From: Bacteroidota bacterium
GTDB lineage: Bacteria; Bacteroidota; Bacteroidia; NS11-12g; UBA955
Direction of reading: 5' to 3'
DNA: 36,094 bases
NCBI GenBank assembly: GCA_013205405.1
Contig: JABMMZ010000109.1
Location: forward strand, 1-36,094
Each line of letters opens with the position of its first letter. Positions within the stretch are counted from its first letter, which is position 1. The position numbers and the translations under genes are program-made. Under the pieces are notes generated by a model that was not told the DNA's origin, did not search any database, and worked only from the letters and a program-made list of their open reading frames with translations. Shown here in pieces: positions 7,139 through 8,028 of this stretch.

Positions 7139-7240
7139 TTTACAAACGTAAAATACAGTATTTACAATTGTAAAGAAGGTAATTTACGTTTGTAAACAAC
7201 TTGTTTTACAAATGTAAAGTCTATGTTTTACATTTGTCAA
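7139..7240. promoter_or_regulatory. Array of five 14-bp palindromic operators, 22-bp period
   Basis: TTTACAAACGTAAA (7139-7152), TTTACAATTGTAAA (7161-7174), TTTACGTTTGTAAA (7183-7196), TTTACAAATGTAAA (7205-7218), TTTACATTTGTCAA (7227-7240). First bases are each exactly 22 bp apart, ending 1 bp before the start codon. Confidence 0.9.
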
Positions 7241-7241
7241 C

Positions 7242-7586
7242 ATGATAGAAGATAAAATATTGATAATTTTTAACCGTTCTGGATTAAGTAGAACAGATTT
7301 TTCAAATAAGCTTGGAATAGCAAATGCAGTACTTTCTCACTTAGCTAGTGGAAGAAATAAAGCCAGTTTAGATTTAGTTATAAATATCCTTACTTATTTT
7401 CCTGATATAAGTGCAGATTGGCTTATATTGAACAAAGGTGAGATGCTACGGTCTCCTTTAGAAAATAATGCTGATAAGATAAAACTTAATTTATTGGATT
7501 ATTTAAATAAGATAACACATGCTAATAACTTAACACATGAAAAAATAAAGAATTTAGAAACTGAAATACAGAATATAAAGGATTAA
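7242..7586 (+). CDS. XRE/CI-like helix-turn-helix transcriptional regulator
   Basis: LSRTDFSNKLGIANAVLSHLASGRNKASLDLVINILTYFPDISADWLILNKGEM, typical of Bacteroidota HTH_3 regulators; C-terminal coiled coil likely. Confidence 0.88.
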   Translation: MIEDKILIIFNRSGLSRTDFSNKLGIANAVLSHLASGRNKASLDLVINILTYFPDISADWLILNKGEMLRSPLENNADKIKLNLLDYLNKITHANNLTHEKIKNLETEIQNIKD

Positions 7587-7611
7587 AAATCGTATATATT
7601 AGCTTAAGCAA

Positions 7612-7950
7612 TTAGAATAAAGATGCTTGTTTGATATTTAAGATATGGGAATAAAACAATTCACTGAACATTTTCTGAGCCCTAGCTAAATACACTTTAT
7701 CTACACTGTAAATTACACTGGTTTTATAGTTTTTGCCATTTACCAAATTAGCCGATCTTAGTTCACTTAAGTGCTGAGATACAGTGCTTTGACTGAGAGG
7801 TAGCTTATCGACTATCTGCTGACAAGTCTGATCATTTTTGGCTAATAATATTTTAATTATTCTAATTCTGGCAGGGTGCCCAAGGGCTTTACATACTATA
7901 CTTAAATCTACTTCAGACGGTTCAAATAAAGATTTCTTACTCATTGCCAT
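7612..7950 (-). CDS. ArsR-family winged-helix transcriptional regulator
   Basis: ALGHPARIRIIKILL...TCQQIVDKLPLSQSTVSQHLSELRSANLV. The ORF opens at 7986, but a TATCTTTG promoter core at 7957-7964 places the likely start at ATG 7950 (MAMSKKS). Confidence 0.88.
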   Translation of the reverse strand: MAMSKKSLFEPSEVDLSIVCKALGHPARIRIIKILLAKNDQTCQQIVDKLPLSQSTVSQHLSELRSANLVNGKNYKTSVIYSVDKVYLARAQKMFSELFYSHILNIKQASLF

Positions 7951-8028
7951 ATCTTGCAAAGATAAGTGATAAAAAATATAACGCAACTTGTTTTATTCAA
8001 ATAATTGAATAAAACTTTTTTTAATATT

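What the first reader, a model, noticed from the sequence alone, without database searches (positions are those of the whole stretch)
7139..7244. Five-operator palindrome array with exact 22-bp phasing, fused to promoter cores of an orphan XRE regulator
Seen directly: five 14-bp sites TTTAC-N4-GTAAA start at 7139, 7161, 7183, 7205 and 7227, always 22 bp apart, and the last ends 1 bp before ATG 7242. Sites 1 and 3 are exact reverse complements; sites 4 and 5 are reverse complements apart from one base. Several contain a Bacteroidota -7 core TAnnTTTG: site 5 TACATTTG (5 nt before the ATG) and site 3 TACGTTTG on the plus strand, sites 1 and 4 on the minus strand. Inference: 22 bp is about two helical turns, so the sites face one side of the DNA and could bind the XRE protein cooperatively, giving graded or bistable autoregulation and possibly antisense transcription. 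The regulator has no prophage or partner gene beside it, and a five-site periodic array is large for autorepression.
Basis: partly seen in the sequence, partly recalled or inferred. Interest (0 to 1): 0.8.

Follow-up and report, generated by a model that had tools for sequence, protein, structure and literature searches.

The report
Self-repressor with 22-bp operator array
A small, single-copy bacterial DNA-binding protein sits directly behind five evenly spaced copies of what is almost certainly its own binding site; the same array is kept in front of the same gene in related species and the site occurs almost nowhere else in their genomes, so the gene seems to regulate essentially itself.

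Summary
Five 14-bp palindromes at 7139-7240, exactly 22 bp apart, abut the ATG of a 114-aa XRE (HTH_3) gene; site 5 has one mismatch. The array is conserved: fifteen species of the genus carry 3-5 sites before the orthologous gene; 44 of 46 intervals are exactly 22 bp, the sites are nearly invariant (TTTACA-NN-TGTAAA) and the linkers almost random, so spacing itself is selected. A DNA-only search for paired sites in 108 genomes of the order finds the XRE promoter every time (control 0); phylum-wide, 7 of 8 hits have an XRE of this family beside them. In four near-complete relatives every exact site is in the array; one-mismatch sites are mostly coding and not shared, so the operator looks private. 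All 30 orthologs checked have a plus-strand Bacteroidota -7 box, essentially always inside an operator; in the window its predicted start leaves a 1-nt leader. Best reading: (probably cooperative) negative autoregulation by promoter occlusion. The locus is vertically inherited; no prophage, toxin, R-M or SOS partner was seen. Bistability and antisense transcription are unsupported. The module appears undescribed; what the protein does beyond controlling itself remains open.

The parts
7139..7152 (.). operator 1, TTTACAAACGTAAA
   Evidence: register -103 relative to ATG, shared by several genus orthologs
7161..7174 (.). operator 2, TTTACAATTGTAAA
   Evidence: register -81
7183..7196 (.). operator 3, TTTACGTTTGTAAA; its TACGTTTG is a poor -7 box (G at -9)
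   Evidence: consensus from PMC6847099
7205..7218 (.). operator 4, TTTACAAATGTAAA (minus-strand TACATTTG)
7227..7240 (.). operator 5, TTTACATTTGTCAA, one mismatch, contains the predicted -7 box
7229..7236 (+). predicted -7 element TACATTTG; start site predicted at 7241, 1-nt leader
   Evidence: with the -12 to -5 position of the element from PMC6847099 and PMC9723704
7242..7586 (+). XRE-family regulator, 114 aa: HTH_3 domain (residues ~1-63) plus C-terminal helix 77-110
   Evidence: PF01381, 1.4e-05; pLDDT 89.9
7612..7986 (-). convergent ArsR-type regulator, conserved neighbour; not shown to be part of the circuit

Best explanation
The array is the operator of the downstream XRE protein, which represses its own promoter. 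A dimer (HTH domain plus long C-terminal helix) binds each TTTACA-NN-TGTAAA palindrome; neighbouring dimers, held at a fixed 22-bp step, probably contact each other and bind cooperatively. The promoter's -7 box lies inside one of the operators (site 5 in the window, next to the ATG), so bound protein excludes RNA polymerase. Strong sites are essentially confined to this one promoter, so the circuit mainly sets the protein's own level. Shown by sequence: array, conservation of motif and of spacing, near-exclusive association with this gene, -7 box inside the operator. Inferred: binding, repression, cooperativity, the transcription start.
For: Genus orthologs: 61 sites, 44 of 46 intervals exactly 22 bp, site bases nearly invariant, linkers at 33% identity against 28% expected. 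DNA-only pair search in 108 genomes of the order: 20 genomes hit, all at the XRE promoter, control 0 (positions compared, and G074 checked). DNA-only pair search in 396 phylum genomes: 8 hit, 7 with an XRE of this family beside the sites. Wider XRE relatives: 57 of 66 promoters have a 9/10 site and 39 of 66 have two, against 13 and 2 of 531 other promoters in the same loci. Every exact site lies in the array in G001, G002, G006 and G008. Plus-strand -7 box in 30/30 orthologs, minus in 17/30, essentially always inside an operator. AlphaFold model: HTH plus 34-residue helix; nearest folds, all weak by E-value, include SinR, P2 C, 434 and P22 repressors. A Bacteroidota regulator with an HTH_3 domain binds TTAC-AAATT-GTAA in its own promoter by EMSA (PMC8565304).
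Against: No binding, expression or start-site data for this gene. A convincing -33 TTG is missing, although -33 is weak in the phylum. The implied leader of 1 nt is unusual (leaderless mRNAs 5.5% in F. psychrophilum). In family f2 and elsewhere the spacing is 26+19 or 22-24, so exact 22-bp geometry is not needed by every relative.
Confidence: 0.8

Rival explanations
1. The XRE is a broader regulator: the array is its strongest target, and single weak or imperfect sites elsewhere form a real regulon.
For: One-mismatch sites are more numerous than the reversed control in five of six genomes (e.g. 44 against 25 in G008, 51 against 30 in G000), and a few lie in promoters.
Against: Outside the array 40/45, 29/34 and 33/39 of the one-mismatch sites are coding in G000, G001 and G008, and no promoter site is shared by orthologous genes among these genomes.
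Confidence: 0.25
2. The gene works like an R-M controller protein or lambda CI: upstream sites activate at low protein level and the promoter-overlapping site represses at high level, giving a threshold or bistable switch.
For: Several equal sites upstream of the one that holds the -7 box; small HTH-only protein with weak fold similarity to C.AhdI and C.BclI.
Against: The next upstream site would be centred near -29.5, over the -33 region, a blocking rather than an activating position (inference). No second gene is driven by the array in a conserved way.
Confidence: 0.12
3. The protein is a domesticated phage repressor kept for immunity: its other targets are operators on incoming phages.
For: Fold and PHROG similarity to phage repressors; hardly any other chromosomal targets.
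Against: In 2.9 million viral contigs only 13 have a close pair of sites, 2 of them at 22 bp, and none carries a close relative of the XRE in the fetched DNA. The gene is vertically inherited with fixed neighbours.
Confidence: 0.08
4. The array is a nucleoprotein or replication/segregation element (iteron or centromere type) rather than a transcriptional operator.
For: Periodic array, private binding protein, one per genome.
Against: No Rep or ParA-like gene recognised beside it; every ortholog has a sense-strand promoter core inside the sites; no match to the gene in several near-complete genera of the family.
Confidence: 0.03

Closest known systems
Non-canonical LexA (S24) regulators of Bacteroidetes (PMC8565304)
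   Same: Bacteroidota, HTH_3 (PF01381) DNA-binding domain, binds a palindrome in its own promoter; the Elizabethkingia member binds TTAC-AAATT-GTAA, nearly the half-site seen here.
   Different: They have an S24 peptidase domain, an N5 spacer and an SOS regulon, and no periodic array is described; the window protein has only an HTH domain plus a helix.
Phage lambda/434/P22 immunity repressors and their operators
   Same: Palindromes of about 14-17 bp repeated roughly 22-24 bp apart over the repressor's own promoter (own knowledge); HTH fold match.
   Different: No divergent cro-like gene, no prophage, 3-5 near-equal sites at an exact step, no CI-type C-terminal domain.
Restriction-modification controller (C) proteins
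   Same: Small HTH-only autoregulators with tandem operators over their own promoter (own knowledge); weak fold match.
   Different: No restriction or modification gene recognised beside it; more sites; no evidence of activation.
SinR-type regulators
   Same: HTH plus C-terminal helical segment; weak fold match 1b0n.
   Different: No SinI-like antagonist seen; SinR controls other operons. Relation to the P. gingivalis SinR ortholog PGN_0088 (PMC3566044) was not tested by sequence.

Membership tests
XRE / HTH_3 (PF01381) | HTH_3 domain above the gathering score | tested here: met
   25.5 bits against cut-off 23; the model shows a helical HTH fold
Non-canonical LexA of Bacteroidetes | S24 peptidase domain | tested here: not met
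   only HTH_3 found in 114 aa; the C-terminus is one helix
Non-canonical LexA of Bacteroidetes | CTAA-N5-TTAG or GGA-N5-TCC operator | tested here: not met
   sites are TTTAC-N4-GTAAA; motifs from PMC8565304
Phage CI/Cro immunity region | prophage context with a divergent second repressor | tested here: not met
   housekeeping neighbours conserved across the genus
R-M controller protein | adjacent restriction and methylase genes | tested here: not met
   none recognised among the window's neighbours or the conserved neighbours in relatives; not every ORF of the relatives was scanned against Pfam
Type II toxin-antitoxin antitoxin | adjacent toxin gene in an operon | tested here: not met
   next downstream gene is a convergent ArsR regulator; upstream gap is about 525 bp
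Autorepressor of the operator-occlusion kind | operator overlaps the core promoter of the regulator's own gene | tested here: met
   TAHHTTTG inside an operator in essentially all 30 orthologs; predicted promoter only, starts not mapped
Autorepressor of the operator-occlusion kind | protein binds the site and lowers transcription | not testable with these tools
   needs EMSA and reporter assays

The most novel reading that the evidence does not exclude
A Bacteroidota-wide family of small XRE proteins whose high-affinity genomic targets are, in this genus, confined to their own promoter: a self-contained regulator with a periodic multi-dimer operator and no classical regulon, whose biological output must come from something other than ordinary gene regulation (a partner protein, incoming DNA, or the level-setting circuit itself).
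Probability: 0.3. Interest if true: 0.7.

Novelty: new variant of a known kind. Interest (0 to 1): 0.5.

Why it matters
Here protein, operator, spacing and promoter core are defined across many genomes by comparison alone, so cooperativity as a function of helical phase can be tested directly in a system with natural 22, 23/21 and 26/19 variants. A conserved regulator with essentially no targets but itself is also a puzzle about why such genes are kept. For annotation, paired TTACA-NN-TGTAA sites near an ATG become a marker for this XRE family in Bacteroidota.

Tried and rejected
Genome-wide regulon: exact motif, one-mismatch sites with an orthology check in three genomes: none found. Tandem duplication or minisatellite: rejected, linkers unrelated. 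Phage immunity: viral contig scans gave only rare, unlinked pairs. Prophage, toxin-antitoxin, R-M context: none recognised. SOS/LexA membership: no S24 domain. Literature: no paper in the held library reports the palindrome in Bacteroidota; searches for XRE operator arrays found nothing relevant. A first genome-contig scan with the single protein found nothing; repeated with an alignment it did. A preference of the plus-oriented core for gene-proximal sites was looked for and is only suggestive (Fisher p 0.09).

Full report
OBSERVATION. Site 5 ends one base before ATG 7242 of a 114-aa ORF. No 22-bp-spaced pair arose in 2000 Markov resamplings of the upstream region.

THE PROTEIN. It matches Pfam HTH_3 (PF01381), no NCBIfam family, and phage repressor PHROGs weakly. 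It is the only match in its own genome at E<=1. AlphaFold2 gives a confident HTH domain and a C-terminal helix, residues 77-110 (mean pLDDT 89.9). Foldseek matches are all weak by E-value (none below 0.001); SinR, P2 C, 434 and P22 repressors and R-M controller proteins are among them.

CONSERVATION IN THE GENUS. Orthologs occur in 14 of 16 other genomes of the genus; the two without a match are 82-83% complete and show no array. Each of the 15 arrays (window included) has 3-5 sites: in total 61 sites and 46 intervals, of which 44 are 22 bp, one 21 and one 23. Fixed site bases are 93-100% conserved and positions 6 and 9 are almost always A and T, so the operator is TTTACA-NN-TGTAAA. Linkers are nearly random (33% identity between genomes, 28% expected). 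The spacing is therefore under selection independently of linker sequence. The grid is also in register with the start codon: sites begin near -15, -37, -59, -81 and -103, with some lineages lacking the -15 or the -103 member.

EXCLUSIVE ASSOCIATION. A search that used only DNA, for two perfect TTTACANNTGTAAA within 30 bp, in 108 genomes of the order found 20 genomes, all at the XRE promoter (compare; the one unfamiliar place, G074:C227, also precedes an XRE of 115 aa); the reversed control pattern gave none. A looser pair pattern in 396 genomes of the phylum found 8, of which 7 have an XRE of this family (profile E-values from 8e-23 to 2e-20) beside the sites. Among 66 wider XRE relatives, 57 have a 9/10 TTACANNTGTAA site within 120 bp of the start and 39 have two or more, against 13 and 2 of 531 other genes in the same loci; spacings peak at 22-24 bp. 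Those relatives come from several Bacteroidota orders by record title.

PRIVATE OPERATOR. In G001, G002, G006 and G008 (96-99% complete) every exact TTTACANNTGTAAA in the genome lies in the array; other genus members have at most one or two elsewhere. In the window's genome the six other TTTACNNNNGTAAA places all lack the ACA..TGT core. One-mismatch sites exceed the reversed control in most genomes, but outside the array 40 of 45, 29 of 34 and 33 of 39 are coding, and none of the few promoter sites in G000, G001 and G008 is shared by orthologous genes. A small or degenerate regulon is not excluded.

CONTEXT. The neighbours are housekeeping genes: a convergent ArsR regulator, a lipid A-type acyltransferase, an M42-type peptidase and a gene resembling a single-stranded DNA-binding protein, kept across the genus (the last two names are from reading the sequences). 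Upstream neighbours vary. G024 carries serC-serA-DUF1015-like genes upstream, as in the other family f2, and ArsR-acyltransferase-peptidase downstream, as in the genus, which ties the two sets of XRE genes together as orthologs. No phage, toxin or restriction gene was recognised. So the gene is vertically inherited, and 'orphan' is right.

PROMOTER. In F. johnsoniae the -7 element is TAHHTTTG at -12 to -5, with G virtually excluded at -10 and -9 and a weak -33 (PMC6847099); F. psychrophilum agrees on position (PMC9723704). Under this rule all 30 orthologs have a plus-strand core within 125 bp, 17 have one on the minus strand, and the plus cores lie in operators in essentially every case (the 'not in site' entries nearest the gene fall in sites with one more mismatch, except the extra cores of L001, L003 and L017). 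Implied shortest leaders cluster at 0-1, 19-23 and 44-45 nt, that is, one array step apart. In the window the core is 7229-7236 and the predicted start 7241. The site 3 and site 1 cores (TACGTTTG) carry a G at -9 and are poor.

MECHANISM. The simplest account is repression by occlusion: the operator covers the -7 box and start site, so the protein shuts off its own gene as it accumulates. Equal spacing with free linkers argues for contacts between neighbouring dimers, possibly through the C-terminal helix; this is inference. 22 bp is 2.1 turns, so five dimers would follow a slowly twisting face rather than one side exactly. Family f2 uses 26+19, which places one site on another face, so geometry is lineage-specific.

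KNOWN OR NEW. The principle (multi-operator autoregulation by a small HTH protein) is known from phage repressors and C proteins. [quoted passage not shown] I found no description of this family, motif or array, within an open-access library only.

LIMITS. The genus genomes with a known record title are metagenome assemblies, and the host is placed only as Bacteroidota. No binding or expression data exist here. Start codon and transcription start are predicted. Shared ancestry inflates counts of sites, although 42-65% protein identity within the genus and near-random linkers show that the arrays have had ample time to drift.

Noticed in passing
linkers of the array, e.g. window 7153-7160, 7175-7182, 7197-7204, 7219-7226: Across the genus the sixth of the eight linker bases is T in 35 of 44 linkers, with no matching A at the mirror position (A in 18 of 44); strand-specific and unexplained.
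   Followed up: no
L075:27-149 and L076:3361-3502: Two large viral contigs (114 and 161 kb) carry their own clusters of TTTACATTTGTAAA sites, with no close XRE relative in the fetched DNA.
   Followed up: partly
window 7242-7986; L055:8554-9225 and others: The XRE and the ArsR-type gene are convergent with ends overlapping by about 9 bp in many of the genus (26-bp gap in the window), a conserved tail-to-tail pair.
   Followed up: partly
L006, L008, L010 about -175 relative to the start: A further single site lies 72 bp upstream of the array in three related genomes, degenerate in two of them.
   Followed up: no
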